A stretch of 64,000 nucleotides of DNA, from positions 428,256 to 492,255 of the forward strand of contig KV918767.1 in assembly GCA_002049455.2 (NCBI GenBank), read 5' to 3'. The stretch comes from Porphyra umbilicalis. Its lineage: Eukaryota > Rhodophyta > Bangiophyceae > Bangiales > Bangiaceae. Shown one piece after another: positions 3,243-15,905 of this stretch. The notes beneath the pieces are model-generated. The model was not told where the DNA came from. It saw only the letters and a program-made list of their open reading frames with translations, and searched no databases. Made by a program: the position numbers and the translations under genes. Position 1 is the first letter of the stretch; each line of letters begins with the position of its first letter.

Positions 3243-5250
3243 TCACTGCCCCGCGGGCGCCCCCCCCCCCCCCCCCAACCCCCCCGCCCACCCCCCCACC
3301 GCCGCCCACACGCCCGCCGCCCACACCCCCCACGCGTACGCCCACACGCGCCAGAGGAGCTGCCACTTTGCCCACTTCCGGGCGAGCCACCCGCGCACCC
3401 CCCGGCGGCCGTCGGCCGCCTCGAGCACCCCCGCCACCGCCGCCGCAGACGCGAGGATGGTCGCCGACGGGGGCGCCGACAGCGACGCGGCGACCGCCCG
3501 CAGGTTGTCATTGACTTTGAGGACGAGGAGCAGCGGCCGGGGCACGCGGCCGAGCATCACCGACGCCGCCGACGCGACCGCCGACGTGCGCGCCGACGAG
3601 GAGAGGTGCGCGAGGGAGGCGGCCGTGGGGGGGTCGACAGCGCCGCCACATTGTTTTGGCGGGGGGGGGGGCGCCACCCGACGGCGGCTGCCGCTGCCGC
3701 CACTGCCCACGGCAGCGGCAGCGGCGGCGCCGTCACCGCCAGCCGCAGCCGCAGACGGCGCCGTCGGCGCGTCGCCAAGGGCGCCCGCCGCCGCGCCCGC
3801 CGGCTCGGCCTCCCCCGACAAGGACGCCCACGAGCGCATTGTGAGCATCGACGCAAAGAGCTTGTAGTGCTCGCCGACGCCCATCACCTCGGCCCCCCGC
3901 CGGAGGCCGTCCACGTCGGCGAGGAGGATGGCCCGCCACAGCCGCGCGTACTCGACCATAAACTCGGGGCTCAGCTGCTGGTACAGCCCGTGGTCGAGCA
4001 ACACGAGCTGCGGGGTCGGGCGCCGCCCCCCCCCCCGCCACCCGCCGCCGCCGCCGGCCGCACGAGCACGTTGGACGGGTGCGGGTCGCTGTGCACCCAC
4101 CCCGACCGAAAGACCATGTGCGCAAACGCGTCGGCGACGAGCGACCCGACCGCCCCCGCGTCGAGGCCCGCGGCGGCGACGCCCGCCGCGTCAGACAGGG
4201 GCACCCCCTCCTCCCAGCTCATGGTCAACACCCGCGGGCGCGTCAGCGGCCACACCACCGCCGGCGTGACGACCGCCGCGGCGAGCGCCGGGCGCGCCGC
4301 GAGCGACGCGGCGCACGCCTCATTGTTGGCCGCTTCGGCGACAAAGTTGAGCTCCCGCGGCAAGTTGCGCTCCGTCTCCTCGGCCAACCACGAGTAGTCA
4401 AAGGCGGGGAAGAGCGCGTGCACCGCGCCGACGAGCGCCTTGACGGTCGCGATATCCCCCGCCGCCGCGTCGCGCAAGCCCCGGTGCTGCACCTTGACGG
4501 CCACGGGGCGGCCGTCGCGGGTGACCGCGCGGTGCACTTGGGCGAGGCTCGCGCTCGCCACGGGCGCCCGCTCAAAGGACGCAAACACCGCCTCGGGGGC
4601 GCCGCCGAGCTCCTCCGCAACCGTCGCCGCCACTTGGGCGTACGGGCGCACGGGGCAGGCAGAGAGGAGGGGCGTCAGCCCCACACAATACTCGGGCGGC
4701 ACCAAAAAGTGCAGCTGCGCCGCGTGCTGCCCGAGCTTGATGTACAAGCCCCCATTCGCCTCGCAGAGGCGGCGGAGGCGGCCCGCGTTGCGCGCGTGCA
4801 CGGCGGCGAGCGCCGCGTCCGCGTCCGCGTCGCCCAGCCGGCGGTAGGTGGGGGAGAGCGACGTGGACGCTGCATAGTCGGCGGCCACGACGGCAACGGT
4901 GGCCACGGTGCGGGCGACGCGCGCGGCGCCGCCGACCGCCGCCGCCGACGCAGAGAGGTGGGCGAGGGACCAGCCGGGGGGGGGGGCGGGGGGGGGGGGG
5001 GGCACGGTGCCCGCCCGCCGCGGCCGCCGTCGCCGCGTCGACGCCGCCCGCGGGCACGTTGCTGGTGGCAAAGACGCCGTCGGCGGTGGCAGACGCCGGG
5101 GAGGGCGGGGGGGGGTCCCCGCCCCGTGGCGGGAGGCCCGCAAAGTAGACGCCCGCGGCGGTGGCGGCGGCGGCCGCCGACCAGCCGACCGCCGCGCCGC
5201 GCCGCCGCGGCCGCCGCCGCGCGGGGGGCGCCCCGCCGCCCGCCCGCGCC

Positions 5251-5522: not shown

Positions 5523-6890
5523 CCGCACGCAGCGGGGGGGGGGGGCGGGGGGGGCGGGGGGGGGGGGTGCACCCGATCGATGCAAGGGGGGTAGGCGCGC
5601 GCGCCGGCGGCGCCGGCGCCGGCGGCACCGACGACGACGACGGCGCCGTCCTCTGTGGGGGCGTCCGTGGAAGCAGGCCATCCCGCCGCGCGGCCGCGCG
5701 GCGGTCAGACGGGCGGCCCGCAGCTGCAGCCACCGGTCGTGTGCCCTTCGGGCGGATGTGCAAAGTGCGCCCAGTCCACGGCCCGTCCGCACTTACATTG
5801 GGCAAGTCTGATTGTCTCGTCTTGTTGGCGACTCGAGAGCCGGGTTGTTCAAGCGTTCCTGGCGAGGGCGTTGTGCGTAGTTTTGTGAGGTATGTTCGCG
5901 GATATCGGATGTTCGGAACTTTGGGCACAAGAAATCTGCTCTTCCGGAAGCTCAGAAACAAAAAGTCGGACTGATTCTCATTTTCGCTCGCAGTCTATCA
6001 AGTCATGTACATTTAGTACCATGCGACCACCCAATCGCATGTATGGTCCACGCCTTGACCATCAAACGGGCGATGTCGGAAAATTACTGTCCATTCTGAG
6101 CTCTTCAGACCACCAATTGTATCACCATTAGTTCTTGAAGGCTAAATATTTCGTTACTCTTTTTATTCTACAGTACAGCATAAAGTCATTGTAGAACTTT
6201 ATTTTACAACCATCTTGTCGGTGATACTCTTGACGAAAACTGAAGGACCACTGTCCGAGGGTTCCTGGGGGGCCACTACCGCCCGGGCCCGCGGCTCTCT
6301 GAAACGACGAGCCGTGGAGCACCCCCGCAAACGCCCGTTTTCGAGGGGAGGCGTCGCCAACCCCGCTTGGGAGGCCCTGCCGCGGCTCGCCGGTGCAGAC
6401 GGCAGCCTGGCGCGCGCTGCCTCGGCCCGCCGCCGCCCCAGCGTCTGTGGCCGTGTGGGCGGGCGCGCCGGCCGAGCGGCGCGCCGCGGCGCCGCCCGCA
6501 GCCGCCTTCCGCCGCCAGCAGCGTCGCCCCGCCGGCCGGCGGCCCCGCCTCGCCCCCGCCAACGCGGCGCGTCCAGCGGGCGGGCGGTCAGACGGCCCGC
6601 GCGTGCCGGGCGGTCGGGAGCGCCGCCGACCGGCGGGCGTGCGCCCGACGTGGTGGTGGTGGCGGTTGCCCACTGCCGCGCCCGCGCGTTGCGCTTGCGC
6701 CTCGCTCCCGCCGCCGCACGCCGCCCCATCCCTGTGGCGCCTGCGGGTCCCCCCCGCCGCTGCTGCGTCCGTCTGTATTGGTGCGGTCGCCGCGAGCGGC
6801 CGTGCCCTCTTTTTTTTTTTCTTCTTTTGCGGCACCCATGCCGCCACGCGGCCGACCCGCCGCCCCCCCCCCCCCCCCCCCCCCCTTGCC
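5523..6890. promoter_or_regulatory. Divergent promoter interval between the ADCK1-like and RFPW-repeat genes
   Basis: The two genes point away from each other. 5530-5572 is a G tract (C tract on the coding strand) just 5' of the ADCK1-like start. 5800-6240 is a clear drop in GC with short A/T-rich stretches, the most likely core promoter zone. 6810-6830 is a T/C tract, and 6863-6885 a run of 23 C ending five bases before the ATG at 6891. No TATA box or other named motif can be asserted. Confidence 0.4.
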
Positions 6891-9522
6891 ATGGTGCCGA
6901 CACCACCCCCGCCGGCGGCGGCGCGCCCCCGCGGCGCCCGCTGCTTGGCGTTTGCGCACGCGGGCGGCGGCGCGGCGCCGTTTGTGGCCACGGGCCGCCC
7001 GCGGGTCGGGGTGGAGCGGGCGCGGCCGGCGGGCGCGCGCACGGGCGTTGCCGCCGCCAAGCGCCGGCGCGCGCGGCCGCCGGGCGACGACGCGCCGGCG
7101 CCGACGCGGACGTGCGTCGCGCAGGCGAATGATGGGGCGCCCCCGCCGGGGGAGGGGCCCCCCGTCGGCGAGCCGCCAACGGCGCGGCGGCTCGCGTGGC
7201 AGTGGCGGTGGCCAGTGGCGGCGGCGCAGCAACGCGCCGACGCGGGCGCGGACGCGGACGCGGACGCGGACGCCGACGCTGGCGGGGCTGCTGCTGGCGC
7301 AGACGCGCGCGGGACGCCGGCAACGGTGGCGTCGGATGGTGCATGGCACCACGACGGCGGATGGGACACGGCCGACGCAGACGATGCGGACGCGGGCGAT
7401 ACGGCAGCGGCGGGCGCCGTCTTGGCGGCCGCCGCCGCGGCGGCGTCGGGTCCCCACGGGGCGGCGACGGCGGCGGCGGGGGGCGCCCCCGCCGGCCCCC
7501 GCATGCCGTGGCCGTGGCGCCGCGTCGGCCACGGTGCCACTGACCGGGACGGCCCAGACGAGGCGGCGGCCATCCGTGGCGCCGCCCCCGCTGGGGAGGG
7601 CGTCGTTGCCGCGGTGGCCGACGCGGACTGGGACGGCGGCCACGGCGTGCACGGGGCGGTGGCGGCCGCGGACTGGGACGGCGCCGACGGTGCGGGCACG
7701 GATTTTGACGGCGCCATCCCGTGGGCGGGCGACATGGCCGCCGCGGGCTTTGTCGACACCCCGCTGGTGTGGGACGAGGCGGGCGGCGGGCGGCCGCCCG
7801 ACGCGCCGCCGCCGCCCGACTTTGTCGCCGTCGACCCGCTGGCGGCGGCGGTGCCCGCGGCGGCCCCCCCCCCCCCCCCCCGCGCTTCCCGTGGCAGCGG
7901 TGGCGGGGCCAAGCGGCAGCGTCGGCCGTGTCGCCGCCGAGCATCCTCGACGATGGGACGCTGTCGCCGCAGGCGGTCGTTGCCGTCGAGTCGGCGGCGG
8001 CGTGGGGTGGGGCGGACGCGGCTGCGGGCGAGCCACCCGCCGCGTCGCTGCCGCTGCCGCCGCCGCCGCCGCGCCGCTTTCCGTGGCAGCGCTGGCGGGA
8101 GGCGGCGGCGGGGGCGCCCGCCATCCTCGACGATGGGTCCCTGACGGACGAGGCGGCCGACGCCACGACGGCGGCGGTGGGGGCGGCCGCGAGGCGCTTT
8201 CCGTGGCACGGCTGGCGGGGGGAGGCGCCCACCGTCGCCGACGCGGTTGCCCCCGCGGAGGCGCCCGCGGCTGTAAGGGAGGAGGCTCTGGCAAAGGGGG
8301 TGGGGGGGACCCCGCCGCCCGTGGCGCCGGCGGCGGAGAGGGGTATTGGGGGTGACGCCCCGGCCGTCGCGGGCGCCGACGCGGCCGACCCACTGGGGGC
8401 CGACTCCCCGACGCCGACGCCGCCCGTCGCCGACGCGGTGGCGCCCGCGCGCGGCTTTGCGTGGCCGCGCTGGCTGGCCGACCGCGCCACGGCGGCGGCG
8501 ACGGCCGACGCGGTGCCGTCGGGCCGCTTCCCGTGGGACCAGTGGCGGGCGAGCCAGACGGCCGACGCGGCCGCGTCGGCGGCGGCGGCCGCCGCCGCTG
8601 CAGCCGCTGCCGCGTCGGCCGCCGCGTCGCCGGCCGCCGCGCCGCGCGTGCGCTTCCCGTGGCGGCGGGGCCCGCCACCGGCAGCGGCGGCGGCGGGCAG
8701 TGACGGCGACGCGGCGGCTGCCGCGGGTCCCGACGGGGGGACGCCGCCCGCTGCCCGCGTGCGCTTTCCGTGGGCGCGCCCGCCGTCGTCGATGGCGGCC
8801 GCCAGTGACGCGGGTGACGGCGGGGCGCGCAACGCCCCGTTCCGCTTCCCGTGGCAGGCCGCCCAAGCGCGTGGGGTGGGGGACGCGCGCGGCGGCGGTG
8901 CGGTTATGGCGCGCTTCCCCTTTCCGCTGCCGTGGCCGCGGCGGGGCGACGCGGCCACGGCGCCCGCCGCCAAGGACGCTGCGGCCGCTGTGGCCGATGA
9001 GGCCGCCACGGATTCGGCGGCGACCGCCGCCGCCACCGCCGTTGCGGCGGCCACCACAGTGGACGCGCCCGCCGCCCCCGCCGGCGGGCCCGTGACGGCG
9101 GGCACGGCCCCCCGGCTGTTCCTGGATCCCCCCCCCCCGGCGGGCGGCGCCGACACGGTGCCGCCGCCGCCCCTGTCGGACGCGGCCGCCGCCGAGGCGG
9201 CCGCCGCCGCGGCCGCGGCCGGCACCTTCCCCCGCACCCAACACCGGGTGCCGCTGCCGCTCCCCCGCCGGGAGCTCACCGTCACGGTCGTGCCCGTGGC
9301 GGCGCCCAAGCAGCTCAAGCGGTCGGCGGCGGCGGTCGTGGCGGCGTTTGGGCCGGCGGCCGCCGGGCTGCTCGCGCGGGCCCTCCGCGGGGGGGGCGGC
9401 GCCGGCGTGGCCGCCGCGCACGCGGCCACCACCGCGCCGGCGGTGGGTGCGGGCGGGTGCGTCGGGGCGGCGGCGGGCTGCGCGGCGGCGGCCGCCGGCG
9501 CGCCCCCCCGTCGGCGGCGGGG
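6891..9522 (+). CDS. Unrecognised low-complexity protein with repeated RFPWxRW tryptophan motifs
   Basis: Not a family I recognise. The ATG follows a C23 tract. The leader contains AFAHAGGGAAPFVATGRPR, which could be an organelle-targeting sequence. After an Ala/Asp-rich stretch come short tryptophan motifs spaced 24-86 residues apart: RRLAWQWRW (7185), RMPWPWRR (7499), two ADWDG units (about 7625, 7670), RFPWQRWRG (7882), RFPWQRWRE (8074), RFPWHGWRG (8194), GFAWPRWLA (8452), RFPWDQWRA (8524), RFPWRR (8653), RFPWARP (8764), RFPWQAA (8846) and RFPFPLPWPRR (8914). The first two RFPW units are followed by ILDDGTLS and ILDDGSLT. Linkers are almost pure Ala/Pro/Gly/Asp, so the chain looks disordered. 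The frame changes in the C run at about 7866-7881, exactly where the RFPW motifs start. A folded-looking end (RRELTVTVVPVAAPKQLKRS) precedes 9522. Function unknown. Confidence 0.6.
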
Positions 9523-9628
9523 GTGAGCGCAGGCGCCCTCTGGGCGTCTGCCGCCGCGCGCGTGCGCGCGGCGGTGGCCGCCCTCCCCCCTTCCCGCTGC
9601 TGTCTGTGCCGCCCGCGTCCCCCCCGAG
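9523..9628 (+). other. Candidate 106-nt GT-AG intron in the RFPW-repeat gene
   Basis: The sequence GGG|GTGAGC at 9520-9528 is a strong donor, and its TGA is the first stop after the RFPW ORF. A long pyrimidine tract follows and ends in CCCCCCCGAG|CGG at 9628. If the frame shifts by one at the C7 run (9503-9509), donor and acceptor are both in phase 0 and lead straight into the hydrophobic segment downstream. There is no ATG on the + strand between 9527 and 9965, so the downstream segment needs an upstream start. Inferred, not proven. Confidence 0.4.
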
Positions 9629-10117
9629 CGGGTGCTCGCGTTCGCCCTCTTCCTCCTCCTCCCCGAACTCGCGCGCGTCGTGTGGCGGGACCTCCACCAC
9701 GCGGATATCGCGTTGCGGACGGCCGCCGCGTCGCCGCCGCTGCTCGCGCGCATCACCGCCGCGGTGCACCGCCACACGGCGCTCGTTGGGGTGACGGGCG
9801 TGGCCTACCTGGCGGGCCTCTACGTCGCCGCCCTCTCGTCGGTGGTGGGGGGGGGTTGCTCGTCCTCGGCGCGGGGCTCGTCTTCAACGTGACCGCGCGG
9901 GTGCGCTTGGTCGGCGGCCGCGTGGAGGCGGTCGGCGTACGGCAGCGGGGGGACGTGCTCGTCGCTAATGCGCTCGCCGCGGCGCTCGTGGGGGGGGTCG
10001 GCCTCGTGGGGGGGGGGGGGGGATGGCCTGCGCGGGGGGGGGCTCGCGCTGGTCGTGGCCTACTGGGCGGCGCGCTACGTGTTTGTGCTCAGCCCGCGGG
10101 CGGCGTCGGCCAAGTGA
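9629..10117 (+). CDS. Multi-pass membrane segment, probable C-terminus of the RFPW-repeat gene
   Basis: It opens RVLAFALFLLLPELARVVW and continues with helices ALVGVTGVAYLAGLYVAAL, LLVLGAGLVF, VLVANALAAALVGGVGLV and LALVVAYWAARYVFVL, ending SPRAASAK and a TGA at 10115-10117. That is four to five membrane spans in about 160 residues. The frame changes at G runs near 9847-9855 and 10009-10041. No ATG is available in front of it, so it is best read as the last exon of the upstream gene rather than a separate gene. No family recognised. Confidence 0.5.
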
Positions 10118-11496
10118 GGTTGGGGGGGGGGGGGGGGGGGGGGGTGCGTGGGGGGGGGAGGGTGTGGTGGCAGCGTGGGTGCGTCCGCGGCGGGGTGCCG
10201 ACGGCGTGCGCGGTGTGCTGCGCGTGGGGCGCTGTGGTGGTGCGGGCTCCGGGGGGCTCGCGTTTTTCGTGTTGCGGTGGGCTTGCGTTTCTCTGCTTTT
10301 TTCCGGTAGTGGCAAGCAGTACAGGAGATGGCTTGAATCATGGACACTTTCGAGGATATGAATAGCTCGCTCTAAAGAAGCACAAACAAACGCTGCGTAC
10401 GAATGAAATGAACAGGAAGAGAGCTCCTGTATTGCTTGTTCATCTGTGACGGAAGGGAATGAAAAGAAGGCATTGGCTTGCCGCGATCGCCGATATCCGT
10501 CCCGCGATCTACTACTTGAGGTTGTGTAATGGTCTGTACTCTTGATGACGTAGTCTCACGGTGGGCGGCACCGTTGTGTATGCCCAGAACCAGCGAGGGC
10601 GTCGGCGGCGGTGGCGGCGGTCGCCTTGCTACGAGCAGAAGAAGAAAAATAGCAAGCCTTGCTGGACGTAGAAGAAAGGATCTCCGTCAAGGATGGGGCG
10701 GACAGTCCGCTGGTTCTGGCGAGCATCCACCACCACGCCACGTTTCTCGTATCCATAGACATGGATATTCAACACGGCCTTGTCCATCTCAGTTTCTCTT
10801 TCAACACGGATGCAACGACCGCTGAAGTGACCACGTATTGATACACGGATGCATTGACCGCTGTACAGTAGTGACCACGTACAGTGCAGCAAATCGGGAC
10901 GCAAGCTGCGTCCAGCCATCCTCTGAAGTGGTGACAAGTGACCTAATGACTTCTGTTTCTACCGTCGAAACTCTTGTCGGCTCAAATCGCATTCCCGCAT
11001 TCCCGGTCCACGCTGGGCGCGGGCGCCTGCGCAAGGACCTGTCGCGTTGCAGGCGTACAACTGTCCCGGCCTTGGCCGTGGCGCGCCGGAACCCACGCGC
11101 ACCGCCGCCTTTGGACGGTCGTGAGCGCCCGCCTCTGCCTACCGCGGCGACTGCACAAGAGAGAAGACGTCGGCGGCCAATGTACGCGGCAAGACGTCGC
11201 GCAGTTGGGACTATCGAGGACCAGTTGAGGGAGGGCCTCCGCGATTACGGGACGGACTTCGCTGTGCCGCGACCTCGACGGCGACGGCAACGGCGGCGGC
11301 GGCGGCAGCGGTAGCGGCGGTGGTGGTGAGGCGAGCCGGGTATTGACGCGGCGCTCCTTGGACCTGACCGTGTCGGCCGAATGGAGCCGACCAACGGACA
11401 TCCAAGCGCTGATCCCTCGTCGGCGGCGGCGGCCGCCCCCCCCCGGCGGACACAGTCGTGTCGGTTGGCGAGCTCCCGGACGAGAGTCCCGGCGAG
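10118..11496. other. Intergenic region with a short tandem duplication
   Basis: A G tract (10120-10142) follows the membrane ORF. 10804-10888 holds two imperfect copies of a roughly 45-bp unit (ACACGGATGCA...GACCGCTG...GTGACCACGTA). 11240-11330 is rich in CGG/CGA triplets. No gene was recognised. The last few hundred bases should include the acyltransferase promoter. Confidence 0.45.
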
Positions 11497-12630
11497 ATGC
11501 CGACCGGCATGGCAGCCATGCCGGCCACCGCCTGCCCCGACGACGTGCACGCCCACTTTCAACCGTTCCGCCGCATTTCCCCTGCGTGGACCCCGTACGA
11601 GGTTGTCAAAACCGCGCTGCTCACCTTTTTTGTCTTTCCCCTGCGGCTGCTCTCTTTTGTGGTGCTCGGCACCGGCATCTACCTGACCGCCGCTCTGGCC
11701 ATGGCGGGCGTGTCGGCGGCCGAGGATTACGCCTACCGGCCGCTGCCGCGGTGGCGCAAGACGCTGCTCGCGGGCATCTCTCCACTGGTGCGGGCGGTCG
11801 CCTTTTGCGCGTTTGGCGTCTACCGCATCCGGTGGACGCGCGCCGACGACACGCACGAAAAGGCGCTGGTCATTGTCGCCAACCACCTCGGCTACCTCGA
11901 CATTGTCGCCCTGCGCGCCGTGTACGCGGGCTCCTTTGTGGCCAAAGGGGACATTGCCAAGGTGCCCCTGCTCGGCAGCGTCGCGCGCGCGATCCAGTGC
12001 CTGTTTGTCGTGGATGGCAAGCCCCTCACCACGTCGCTGCTGCAGCGCGTCGACGCCACCTACGCCTGCCACCTGTCCAAGCGCGCGCGCCTGTCGACCG
12101 AAGCGCCGACCGGCGAAGCCCCCGCCGATTGCCCCGGCTGCGGCACGTGCCTCAACACGCTGACCATCTTTCCAGAGGGCACGACGTGCAACGGGACAGC
12201 CATGATCAAATTCCGCACGGGCGTCTTCCTCGCCGGCAAACCCGTCCGCCCGGTCGTCGTCAAGCTCCCCTACAAGCGGTGGAACACCTCGTGGGAGTCG
12301 GTGCCTTTCCGGTACCACATGTGGCGGACGATGACGCAGGTGTCCAACAGCGTGGAGCTGGTCGAACTCCCCATGTACGTGCCCGACGAGGCCGAGTCGG
12401 CCGACCCGCGGCTGTTTGCCGAGCGCGTGCAAACGGACATGCAGGCGGTGCTCGACGGGGTGCCCGTGTACGAGCTGTCGCGGAAACACAAGTTTGTGTA
12501 CCACGATTTCCTGCGGGGCAAAGTCGACGCGCCGGCCGCACTGGCCAAGGCGGAGGAGCTGCGGCGGGGGGACAAGCTGCTGCTGGCGGCGGCCACAGAG
12601 GGGGCTGAGGCGGCGGCGTCGCCGGCATGA
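11497..12630 (+). CDS. Lysophospholipid acyltransferase, LPCAT/LPEAT type
   Basis: Membrane PlsC-family enzyme that transfers an acyl group from acyl-CoA to a lysophospholipid; acts in membrane lipid remodelling, normally at the ER. The ORF is intact, 377 residues from the ATG at 11497 (MPTGMAAMPA). Residues 38-70 are strongly hydrophobic (membrane anchor). Motif I is NHLGYLD (129-135, HX4D), followed by AKGDIAKVPLLGSVAR, motif III FPEGTT (225-230), KFRTGVF (238-244), and motif IV KPVRPVVVKLPYK (248-260), an order typical of LPCAT1/LPEAT rather than bacterial PlsC. A Cys pair (CPGCGTC) precedes FPEGT. No EF hand is present. One of two island genes with a fully continuous frame. Confidence 0.88.
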   Translation: MPTGMAAMPATACPDDVHAHFQPFRRISPAWTPYEVVKTALLTFFVFPLRLLSFVVLGTGIYLTAALAMAGVSAAEDYAYRPLPRWRKTLLAGISPLVRAVAFCAFGVYRIRWTRADDTHEKALVIVANHLGYLDIVALRAVYAGSFVAKGDIAKVPLLGSVARAIQCLFVVDGKPLTTSLLQRVDATYACHLSKRARLSTEAPTGEAPADCPGCGTCLNTLTIFPEGTTCNGTAMIKFRTGVFLAGKPVRPVVVKLPYKRWNTSWESVPFRYHMWRTMTQVSNSVELVELPMYVPDEAESADPRLFAERVQTDMQAVLDGVPVYELSRKHKFVYHDFLRGKVDAPAALAKAEELRRGDKLLLAAATEGAEAAASPA

Positions 12631-13460: not shown

Positions 13461-15047
13461 TCACATGCCCCCAAAGTCCAGCTGCGAGATCTCGGGGTGG
13501 TCGACCATCGTTTGGAGGGACGAGGCCACAAACGCGGCCGCCACATTCTCCGCCATGAGCCGCTCGAGCCACCCCCGAGGGCGCCCCGTCAGCCGCCGCA
13601 CGGTGACGCCGTCAATGACCGCCACCTCCGTGTCGGGGCCGAGCGGTGGGGCGCCACCGCCGCCCCCCCCCCCCCCCCCCCCCCCGCCCCCATCACCGTC
13701 CGTGTCGTCGCCCGCCGCCGCGGCCGGCCGCGACGAGGCGTCGACTTCGCGCATCGGGAGGTCCCCCCCCGCTTCGACGGCGGCGAGCCACGCGCGCAAC
13801 ACCGCATTGACCGCCGCCGGCGCTTCGGCGTGCGGGCAGTGCCCCGCCGGGCTCAGCTCAAAGTAGGCCGTAGCCGGCGCGCGGCGCTTGACGCGGTGCC
13901 CCCACGCGGGCACCACCCACACGTCGTCCCGCCCGTTGATCATGGCGAGCGGGAGGCCGTGGGTGGTGGCCACCGCGTCGACGGCAGCGTCAAAAGTCTG
14001 CTCCCCGCGGCTCGACAGGAGCATTTGGGCAAAGCGGTCAAAGGCGCCGTCCTGCCGCGTCGGCGCCAAAATTTGGTTGACGAGCCGCTCTGTCACGCGG
14101 GCGGGGGTGGCGTAGACCAACTGCAGCAGCCGCGTGAGGGTGGGGGGGTGGCGGAGGTTGGCCCAAAAGCGGCGCAGCACCCACCGCGCGACGGCAGACG
14201 AGCGCAGCGGCACCGTAATCGCCGCGTGCAGGCGCGGGGAGGTGGTCGGGTGGGGGAGCGCGCCGAAAAAGGGGGCGGCGTTGAGGAGGACTACCCCGCG
14301 GGTCAAGTCGGGCCGCGCCGCGGCGGCGGTGATGGCGACGAGGCCGCCGAGGGAGTTGCCGGCCACGTAGACGGGCTCGCCGACAATGTGCTCGATAAAG
14401 GCCGCCACCTGCGCCGCCCAGAGGTCGACGCCGAGAGGGGGGAGGGCGGCCGCCGAGCCGTCCCCGTCGGTGGCACCGGCCGCGTCGGCTGCGTCGGCGG
14501 CGTCTGGAGGCGATGCGGGCGGCGCCGGCAGGGACCGCCCGAGCCCGAGCTTGTCCATACACCACACCCGATGGTCGGCGGCCAAGTCGGCCAGCGTCTC
14601 CTCCCAGTGAAAGGTGCCCACCCCAAAGCCGGGCAGTAGCAGCACCGGTGGCCCAGTCGTCCCTGCCGTCACATAATGCACCCGCCCGCCCGGCCAGTCC
14701 CAGTAGTGGCCCTCGGGGCACAAAAAGTCGACGGCGGCGTCGCCCCCATCGTCAGCCGCCGCGTCCACCGCAGGTTCTGGCGGCGCTGGCGCTGGCGACC
14801 GCGACCGGCCGGGCGCGTCATCCGTAAAAGCCGCTGCCGCGTCGCGGGCGCCTGCCCAGGCGGCCGGCGGCCGCGGCGGCGCGGGCGGCCCGTCGGGGTG
14901 GCGGTGGCCAGCCGCCGCGGCGCGGAGGCTCGCAACGCCGCACCGGGGGGGGCCAACCGACACGCCCGACGGGCGACAAGCGCGTGCGCGGCGCGCCACC
15001 GCCGAGCGGTGGCCGCACCCCAGCGGTGGGGGCGGGAGGAAGGCCAT
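13461..15047 (-). CDS. Plastid alpha/beta hydrolase, pheophytinase-like
   Basis: Alpha/beta-hydrolase whose closest recognisable pattern is plant pheophytinase (removes phytol from pheophytin) and its plastid relatives. The start at 15047 gives 528 residues beginning MAFLPPPPLG, a plastid-type leader rich in Ala/Arg; an ATG-less extension upstream remains open. Core motifs: WPGGRVHYVTAG, LLLPGFGVGTFHW (oxyanion hole), CMDKLGLGRS, the nucleophile elbow GNSLGG, the acid strand MINGRDDVWVV, and the catalytic His in SPAGHCPHAEAP, which parallels GHCPHDE of pheophytinase. A Ser/Asp/Ala insert lies before the nucleophile, and a poly-Gly stretch encoded by a C/G run near 13663-13686 lies before a conserved-looking tail ending QLDFGGM. 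The frame is intact throughout. Exact substrate not provable from sequence. Confidence 0.82.
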   Translation of the reverse strand: MAFLPPPPLGCGHRSAVARRARACRPSGVSVGPPRCGVASLRAAAAGHRHPDGPPAPPRPPAAWAGARDAAAAFTDDAPGRSRSPAPAPPEPAVDAAADDGGDAAVDFLCPEGHYWDWPGGRVHYVTAGTTGPPVLLLPGFGVGTFHWEETLADLAADHRVWCMDKLGLGRSLPAPPASPPDAADAADAAGATDGDGSAAALPPLGVDLWAAQVAAFIEHIVGEPVYVAGNSLGGLVAITAAAARPDLTRGVVLLNAAPFFGALPHPTTSPRLHAAITVPLRSSAVARWVLRRFWANLRHPPTLTRLLQLVYATPARVTERLVNQILAPTRQDGAFDRFAQMLLSSRGEQTFDAAVDAVATTHGLPLAMINGRDDVWVVPAWGHRVKRRAPATAYFELSPAGHCPHAEAPAAVNAVLRAWLAAVEAGGDLPMREVDASSRPAAAAGDDTDGDGGGGGGGGGGGGGAPPLGPDTEVAVIDGVTVRRLTGRPRGWLERLMAENVAAAFVASSLQTMVDHPEISQLDFGGM

Positions 15048-15905
15048 CGCGGCGCCCGTGACGCGGCGCTCGACCCCGTGGGCAGCCGCCGCAAGCCGGC
15101 CGTGACGTGCCAACCGTGCGGAGGTAACCGGTCTCGCCGCCGTTTTCGAGCGGGAAAGGGACACGCACAGACACCAGAGGTGAGGGGACGCCGCAGGGGG
15201 GCGAAGAGTGGACGGCACAGCGGGTGATGGCGACAGCGGCAGCACGCGGCAGTGTCGGCGCGAGCAGCGACGTCGCTCGCGCCGTCAAACCCCCGAGCGC
15301 GCTCGTGCGGCGAGGCGGAGGAGCCGGCGGGGGCCTTGCACATGGCTCCCAACAGGCTGCCGACAAATATCTGGGCGTCCCCGGGAGTGGAAACTGAGAC
15401 CCGGGAAGTGCAGCCAGATTCTCACACTTGCAGAAAGTACATCCATCGTTGACCCGGACGAGTGTATTTGGGCATCACTTGATTCCATCGGCAGCAGCCC
15501 GCGAAAAAGAGCGAGCATGTCGATGAAGTCACCAGACTGCCGTTGCCGCGGCTCGGGCACGCGGCCACCCACGGCGTCTGCGCCACCGCCGCCGCCACCC
15601 ACCTCGGCGACCGCGCCTGCGCCCTGTCCCCGTGTTGCTGGCGTCGCCCCAGCGGACCGTCGTGGGCCTTTGTTCCCATGTCTCTGCTCGTAGTATCATT
15701 TTGATTGGCCCGGCACGCCATCCCGGCCGCGCTCGCGCTCTCCCCCACTGTCGACCGCGCCGACGGGCGCCACGGTCGGCGACGGACCCCCCGCGTCGAG
15801 TATTGTGGTTGCCCGCCGGCGGCGGACGCCCGCAACTTTTACGCAACTGCCGTTGCACCTGCTGCTTGGGCTTTTTGTGCACTTCCCCCAGCCGGTCCCG
15901 TCACG
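15048..15905. promoter_or_regulatory. Divergent promoter region of the hydrolase and CDC73 genes
   Basis: Head-to-head genes share this 858-bp interval. An inverted CCAAT box (ATTGG within TTTGATTGGCCC) lies at about 15699-15704. Nothing else can be assigned. Several ORFs read through it, but they show no family motifs. Confidence 0.45.

What the first reader, a model, noticed from the sequence alone, without database searches (positions are those of the whole stretch)
6891..10117. Undescribed multivalent tryptophan-motif protein (RFPWxRW) with a possible membrane anchor
Seen: nine or more short RFPW/FPW-type motifs and two earlier W motifs, 24-86 residues apart, in linkers made almost only of Ala, Pro, Gly and Asp. 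Two of the motifs are followed by ILDDG(T/S)L. A hydrophobic multi-span segment follows. Known: short Arg/Trp stickers in disordered linkers are how EPYC1 (green algae) and PYCO1 (diatoms, KWSP motifs) gather Rubisco into pyrenoids, and membrane proteins with the same stickers tether it to thylakoid tubules. Inferred: if the host is a red alga, this could be an analogous scaffold or tether for a plastid client. The client is unknown and the Rubisco link is only a hypothesis.
Basis: partly seen in the sequence, partly recalled or inferred. Interest (0 to 1): 0.75.

Follow-up and report, generated by a model that had tools for sequence, protein, structure and literature searches.

The report
Red algal membrane protein, tryptophan-studded tail
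A seaweed gene encodes an uncharacterised membrane protein with a long, probably floppy tail carrying eleven similar tryptophan motifs, a layout that recalls proteins that gather the carbon-fixing enzyme Rubisco in other algae, but nothing here shows what it binds.

Summary
Window 6891-10117 (+) encodes one protein of about 1,070 residues, read across homopolymer runs where the assembly loses frame. Codon-phase composition switches where the frame does, and the neighbouring ABC1 kinase gene is broken at a homopolymer too, so the breaks look like assembly errors. There are eleven [FLM][PA]W motifs, eight of them [RG]F[PA]W (shuffled mean 0.05), in Ala-rich divergent linkers, followed by a multi-span membrane domain. 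That domain is single copy in the genome and 84% identical, over 69% of the query, in the one relative found. No relative of the motif part was found, so motif conservation is untested. The host is a red alga, probably Bangiales (65% GC window, red-type Rubisco, phycobiliproteins, chlL). Best reading: a multivalent short-motif tail on a membrane anchor that docks or concentrates a partner, perhaps in the plastid. Rubisco is the leading candidate but unproven (about 0.2). The EPYC1-type and PYCO1 signatures are absent and the tail is acidic overall, so it is filed in no known linker family. In layout it is closest to Chlamydomonas BST4/RBMP1, whose authors now reject a tether role. Interest rests on no red-algal pyrenoid linker appearing in the open papers searched.

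The parts
6891..10117 (+). whole gene as read here, about 1,072 residues, apparently one exon, with homopolymer frame breaks
6891..7085 (+). N-terminal 65 residues: 13 K/R, 1 D/E, Ala/Arg/Pro-rich; transit-peptide-like by composition only
   Evidence: no targeting predictor available
7086..7880 (+). acidic segment (pI 4.05) with two Trp motifs and several Trp in acidic settings
7185..7217 (+). motif 1, RRLAWQWRWPV
7497..7529 (+). motif 2, PRMPWPWRRVG
7864..7881 (+). C18 run where the frame changes
7883..7906 (+). motif 3, RFPWQRWR
7943..7963 (+). ILDDGTL
8072..8104 (+). motif 4, RRFPWQRWREA
8123..8143 (+). ILDDGSL
8192..8224 (+). motif 5, RRFPWHGWRGE
8450..8482 (+). motif 6, RGFAWPRWLAD
8522..8554 (+). 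motif 7, GRFPWDQWRAS
8648..8680 (+). motif 8, VRFPWRRGPPP
8759..8791 (+). motif 9, VRFPWARPPSS
8840..8872 (+). motif 10, FRFPWQAAQAR
8924..8956 (+). motif 11, PLPWPRRGDAA
9503..9625 (+). stretch with three short C-runs (9503-9509, 9585-9590, 9619-9625) where the frame changes; from about 9562 it is coding in the relative, which argues against an intron here
9626..10114 (+). membrane domain: 19-residue hydropathy above 1.6 at residues 913-931, 963-985, 981-1008 (overlapping windows) and 1023-1041; a last hydrophobic stretch from residue 1049 peaks at 1.53, under that threshold

Best explanation
A nuclear-encoded multi-span membrane protein whose roughly 850-residue N-terminal tail, probably disordered, works as a string of weak stickers. 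Each basic Trp motif ([R]FPWx(R)W) binds one copy of a repeated site on a partner, and flexible spacers of 24-127 residues let one tail engage many partner molecules, so that the membrane becomes coated by, or docked to, a dense assembly of that partner. Shown: the gene, the motifs, their spacing, the divergence of the linkers, the membrane domain and its conservation in one relative. Inferred: disorder, sticker action, plastid location (about 0.55) and Rubisco in the pyrenoid as partner (about 0.2).
For: Eight [RG]F[PA]W against a mean of 0.047 on shuffling. Seven of the eight cores encode RFPW with only silent TTC/TTT variation (the eighth is GFAW), while the 60 bases after the eight motifs are no more alike than random in-frame pairs of the region: 28 pairs, mean 0.40, range 0.27-0.52, against null mean 0.39, sd 0.07. 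So the motif is kept and the spacers are not, as expected of stickers and spacers. Nine of ten intervals lie within the 20-120 residues that the FLIPPer authors take as feasible for cross-linking Rubisco (PMC11570498, passages). The model of the motif region has mean pLDDT 48, compatible with disorder; four of its short low-confidence helices (residues 4-12, 68-76, 197-208, 218-248 of that piece) begin at or just after a motif. The membrane domain is 84% identical to P0001 over 69% of the query. The host is a red alga with rbcL/rbcS of red type and phycobiliproteins, and the 65.0% GC of the window fits Bangiales (genomes 64-68%, other red algae 37-57%; PMC7423979, passages).
Against: No relative of the motif part was found, so motif conservation is unshown. 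The tail is acidic overall (pI 4.66 for residues 66-860). No other ORF with several RFPWxxW motifs was found by exact pattern: of 50 matches 42 share one near-identical 21-mer taken as a dispersed repeat, 4 are here, 4 are single motifs in ORFs of 375, 26, 74 and 30 residues. No targeting, expression or binding evidence. The membrane domain has no family or PDB sequence match, no usable fold match and no convincing match in 12 cyanobacterial genomes.
Confidence: 0.45

Rival explanations
1. The specific Rubisco version of the best explanation (a subset of it): a pyrenoid matrix-to-thylakoid linker or a pyrenoid-addressed membrane protein of red algae, the stickers binding red-type Rubisco.
For: Host has red-type Rubisco. 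Layout resembles BST4/RBMP1, a multi-span protein whose disordered tail with two Rubisco-binding motifs is needed for its place in the pyrenoid tubules (PMC11638005, passages). Linkers differ in sequence between lineages (PMC11570498, passages; PMC13159521, passages).
Against: No PYCO1 or Volvocales motif; acidic tail; no targeting or binding evidence; that Bangiales plastids have pyrenoids is recalled, the passages read do not show it for this order.
Confidence: 0.2
2. The Trp/Arg motifs are membrane-interface anchors rather than protein stickers: the tail zips along its own membrane or onto a facing one, setting membrane spacing or curvature.
For: Arg/Trp/Pro-rich motifs recall Trp/Arg-rich cathelicidin peptides such as tritrpticin and indolicidin (recalled, no call). 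By Wimley-White values (recalled scale) the motifs are the most interface-prone parts of the tail: of the 30 lowest 11-mers of residues 66-860 (-3.7 to -0.9 kcal/mol, overall mean +2.6), 26 overlap a motif.
Against: The eleven motif segments themselves range from -2.4 to +2.1 kcal/mol, six of eleven below zero, so most would bind only weakly without charge attraction. No PDB sequence match for a 70-residue motif piece at E up to 10 (chains under 20 residues are not in that library).
Confidence: 0.2
3. A sticker protein of another compartment or client (secretory pathway, plastid division, phycobilisome, nucleoid).
For: The plastid location rests only on N-terminal composition; no family ties the membrane domain to the plastid.
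Against: No strongly hydrophobic N-terminal signal: best 15-residue mean 1.27. None of the tested adaptor motifs DPW/DPF, WxxF, PPxY (motif forms recalled).
Confidence: 0.2
4. Five motifs hold WxxW, a site for C-mannosylation (recalled); the tail would be a glycosylated lumenal domain.
For: WxxW at residues 334, 398, 438, 524, 548.
Against: Six of eleven motifs lack WxxW, so the shared core is F-P-W, not WxxW. Whether the genome holds the transferase could not be tested (searches did not complete).
Confidence: 0.04
5. A pseudogene, or a chance low-complexity ORF of a GC-rich genome.
For: Several frame breaks and long antisense ORFs.
Against: The proposed breaks sit at homopolymers. The neighbouring ABC1 kinase is broken at C11 4026-4036 between its DPHPSNVL and VLLDHG blocks. 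Codon phase holds in all seven segments tested. The membrane domain is 84% identical to a relative over 69% of the query.
Confidence: 0.05

Closest known systems
BST4/RBMP1 of Chlamydomonas (PMC11638005, passages)
   Same: multi-span membrane protein with a long disordered tail carrying short Rubisco-binding motifs
   Different: bestrophin domain, C-terminal tail, two motifs of another sequence; here no Pfam domain, N-terminal tail, eleven motifs, no known client. The authors conclude BST4 is not a tether but most likely an ion channel; its tail is needed for its place in the pyrenoid
PYCO1 of the diatom Phaeodactylum (PMC10288592, passages)
   Same: repeated, unevenly spaced Trp stickers; red-type Rubisco in both hosts
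   Different: KWSP and GTGYNP motifs absent here; no membrane domain is mentioned in the passages read
EPYC1 and CsLinker, green algal linkers (PMC10473226, PMC11570498, passages)
   Same: disordered, repeated elements at 20-120 residue spacing; little conservation between lineages
   Different: EPYC1-type motif absent here (CsLinker's sequence was not compared); no membrane anchor in those (recalled); tail here is acidic overall
Trp/Arg-rich cathelicidin peptides (recalled)
   Same: Arg-, Pro- and Trp-rich composition of the motif
   Different: short secreted peptides; no homology shown, a PDB sequence search with a motif piece had no hits

Membership tests
Volvocales Rubisco-binding-motif proteins (EPYC1, RBMP1/2, SAGA) | motif [D/N]W[R/K]xx[L/I/V/A] (form recalled) | tested here: not met
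   0 matches; the relaxed W[RK]xx[LIVA] gives 4. [quoted passage not shown]
PYCO1 | KWSP and GTGYNP repeats; large-subunit motif of the form EWxSM | tested here: not met
   0 matches of each (motifs)
Pyrenoid linkers in the FLIPPer sense | repeated elements 20-120 residues apart | tested here: met
   9 of 10 intervals inside, one of 127 outside (criterion); the FLIPPer program itself was not run
Pyrenoid linkers in the FLIPPer sense | largely disordered, with structured (helical) repeats | tested here: inconclusive
   composition, and an AlphaFold2 model without alignment: mean pLDDT 48, short low-confidence helices at some motifs; no disorder predictor run
Pyrenoid linkers in the FLIPPer sense | binds and condenses Rubisco in the pyrenoid | not testable with these tools
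   needs experiment
Bestrophin-like RBMP1/BST4 | bestrophin domain | tested here: not met
   no Pfam match of the membrane domain at E up to 10
Plastid-targeted red algal proteins | transit peptide | tested here: inconclusive
   basic, Ala/Arg-rich first 65 residues; no predictor; start codon uncertain next to C23 6863-6885
Cyanobacteria-derived membrane families | homologue in cyanobacteria | tested here: inconclusive
   two-row profile against 12 cyanobacterial genomes: two weak matches (E 0.07 and 0.8), none at E below 0.05; pattern-based scan of genome contigs confirmed none of 119 candidate stretches. Sensitivity to distant relatives is low

The most novel reading that the evidence does not exclude
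The first Rubisco linker or docking protein known from a red alga, built on a membrane anchor rather than as a soluble matrix protein, so that the thylakoid surface itself nucleates the pyrenoid matrix.
Probability: 0.18. Interest if true: 0.85.

Novelty: new variant of a known kind. Interest (0 to 1): 0.5.

Why it matters
No pyrenoid linker from red algae turned up in the open-licence papers searched (listings; passages; preprints and most subscription papers are not held), although red algae are the source of the plastids of diatoms and many other marine algae (recalled). A gene with a single-copy membrane domain and eleven kept Trp motifs is a concrete, cheap candidate to test. Even if the client is not Rubisco, it would be a multivalent-motif membrane scaffold with no described relatives in the libraries searched.

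Tried and rejected
Intron in place of frame breaks: a GTGAGC donor at 9523 and an AG ending at 9628 exist, but the phases do not fit and the relative is coding from about 9562 on. Antisense gene: no Pfam match for the longest antisense frame, and the phase switches follow the + strand frames. Repeat expansion as the source of the motifs: flanks are no more alike than background. Other RFPWxxW proteins in the genome: the four single matches outside the repeat lie in ORFs with one motif each, looked at in their own frame only. A VRFPW pattern gave 106 matches (control 11); of the 100 listed 79 by my count are one identical 15-mer, 2 are in this gene, and of the remaining 19 only one (C87) was looked at, so single-motif partners are not excluded. 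A 54-residue motif piece matched four further places (E 0.009 to 0.94) whose 3.1 kb loci hold no [FLM][PA]W in any of three frames. Fold of the membrane domain: P0001 model has mean pLDDT 54 and no Foldseek match at E below 0.001. Relatives by DNA pattern: none confirmed in viral contigs or genome contigs, two short peptide patterns each. Host species: allophycocyanin comparison with PDB chains did not settle it; chain 1kn1, recalled as Porphyra yezoensis, was not the nearest. chlL in the plastid contig fits Bangiales, but the taxonomic value of that gene is recalled.

Full report
What is there. Window 6891-10117 on the + strand holds one long coding region, broken into pieces. From ATG 6891 the frame is open to the C18 run at 7864-7881. 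There it changes, and the new frame stays open to a TGA at 9524. After three short C-runs and a G9 run the reading continues in changing frames to a stop at 10115-10117. In the seven segments tested, GC content by codon phase is lowest at the second and highest at the third position of the frame proposed for the + strand, and it switches where the frame switches (two of the seven are short). The neighbouring ABC1 kinase gene (Pfam PF03109, E 4.9e-56) is split between its DPHPSNVL and VLLDHG blocks with a C11 run between them (4026-4036), so homopolymer length errors are likely in this assembly. The joined protein has 1,072 residues.

A relative fixes much of the C-terminal part. P0001 (175 aa; source code lgn, one contig of 4,202 bases) was the only hit at E up to 10 among 7,996 scored candidates from 5.8 billion proteins: E 3.2e-60, 84% identity over 69% of the query; over the longer MAFFT alignment with the joined 200-residue piece identity is 75%. 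It runs without a break from the residue matching about 9562 to that matching about 10007, a stretch the window reads in four frame segments. Its last 22 residues resemble a different frame of the window (10 matches to frame 0, 4 to each other frame), so that sequence appears to slip at the same G-run. In the window, codon phase there favours the hydrophobic frame LALVVAYWAARYVFVLSPRAASAK, whose 19-residue hydropathy peaks at 1.53.

The motifs. Eleven [FLM][PA]W sites were found, eight of them [RG]F[PA]W; shuffling gives a mean of 0.047 for the latter. Seven of the eight cores are RFPW with silent change only (TTC or TTT), and the following 60 bases are no more alike than random in-frame pairs of the region (mean 0.40 against 0.39). 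Motif surroundings carry net charge +1 to +4 in a tail that is acidic (pI 4.66 for residues 66-860). In the window the best stop-to-stop ORF has nine such sites; the only other ORF with two or more is the first part of the same gene. In the 83.8 Mb genome CGCTTYCCGTGG occurs 109 times, not above its reversed control of 119; 7 of the 109 lie here, and among the 100 listed no other 10 kb holds more than two. Of 50 places of the wider RFPWxxW pattern (control 3), 42 share one near-identical 21-mer and are taken as a dispersed repeat (one copy translated), 4 are here, and 4 are single motifs. A VRFPW search was not fully followed up (see Tried and rejected). The membrane domain is single copy: two of the four matches are this locus, the other two have E 0.7 and 1.8.

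The host. The genome includes a plastid contig with rbcL and rbcS whose best PDB matches (8bdb, 1bwv, 7yk5, 4f0h and others, 925 bits or more for rbcL) are red-type enzymes, well above the rest (856 bits or less); the organisms behind those codes are recalled. It also has phycobiliproteins and chlL. Window GC is 65.0%. The Pyropia yezoensis genome paper gives 64-68% for Bangiales genomes and 37-57% for other red algae (PMC7423979, passages); one window is a small sample of a genome. Bangiales is therefore likely; the species is not known. That Bangiales plastids hold a pyrenoid is recalled; the passages read do not describe it.

What it is not. The membrane domain has no Pfam match, one NCBIfam match far under its cut-off, and no significant PDB sequence match, no convincing match in 12 cyanobacterial genomes, and a model too poor to compare. 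The EPYC1-type motif and the PYCO1 motifs are absent. Two searches with the motif part found no relative at E up to 10; the first drew on residues 325-1072 of the full protein, the second on a 357-residue piece. Both scored only the candidates sharing most words and only proteins within the length limits, so absence is not proof. Rapid divergence of the tail would look the same; linker proteins show little conservation between species (PMC11570498, abstract as listed).

How it probably works. A flexible tail with many weak, similar basic Trp motifs on a membrane anchor is best explained as a multivalent docking or scaffolding device. The closest layout is BST4/RBMP1 of Chlamydomonas: its tail with two motifs is needed for its place in the pyrenoid tubules, but the mutant forms normal tubules, and the authors conclude it is not a tether but most likely an ion channel (PMC11638005, passages). 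The same caution applies here: stickers on a membrane protein may only address it to a condensate. Rubisco is the obvious client by analogy, but nothing measured here points to it over others. The main alternative is that the Trp/Arg motifs bind membrane interfaces; interfacial free energies computed with recalled scale values leave this open.

Verdict. It is a new variant of a known kind (multivalent motif tail plus membrane anchor), filed under no known family.

Noticed in passing
window 4026-4036: C11 run between the two halves of a conserved ABC1 atypical kinase on the minus strand, where its frame breaks; a sign of homopolymer errors in this assembly.
   Followed up: yes
window, 21 places, e.g. 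910, 6863, 10122, 13663: G or C homopolymers of 14 to 29 bases at 21 places in 64 kb.
   Followed up: no
window 6838 and 6863-6885: C23 run just before the ATG at 6891; an upstream ATG at 6838 in another frame could be the true start if the run length is wrong.
   Followed up: no
window 7086-7880: Acidic part of the tail holds Trp in acidic settings (ADWDG twice, GGWDTA, LVWDEA), which might pair with the basic Trp motifs.
   Followed up: no
joined residues 813-831 (window about 9330-9385): An Ala-rich stretch ahead of the membrane domain also passes the 1.6 hydropathy threshold (1.68); possible extra helix.
   Followed up: no
42 places in G000, e.g. C5:190222: A dispersed repeat containing CGCTTCCCGTGGCGATTCTGG and close variants; in the one copy translated a short ORF happens to read ERFPWRFW. 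Family not identified.
   Followed up: partly
G000, 79 of the 100 listed places (counted by eye): A second dispersed repeat containing GTTCGATTTCCATGG.
   Followed up: no
window 11413-12630 (+) and 13461-15284 (-): Neighbours: an acyltransferase (PF01553) and an alpha/beta hydrolase (PF00561), the latter with a segment starting MAFLPPPP that looks like a red-algal transit peptide.
   Followed up: partly
window 6128-9883 (-): Antisense open frame of 1,251 codons without any Pfam match, probably a by-product of the GC-rich sequence.
   Followed up: yes
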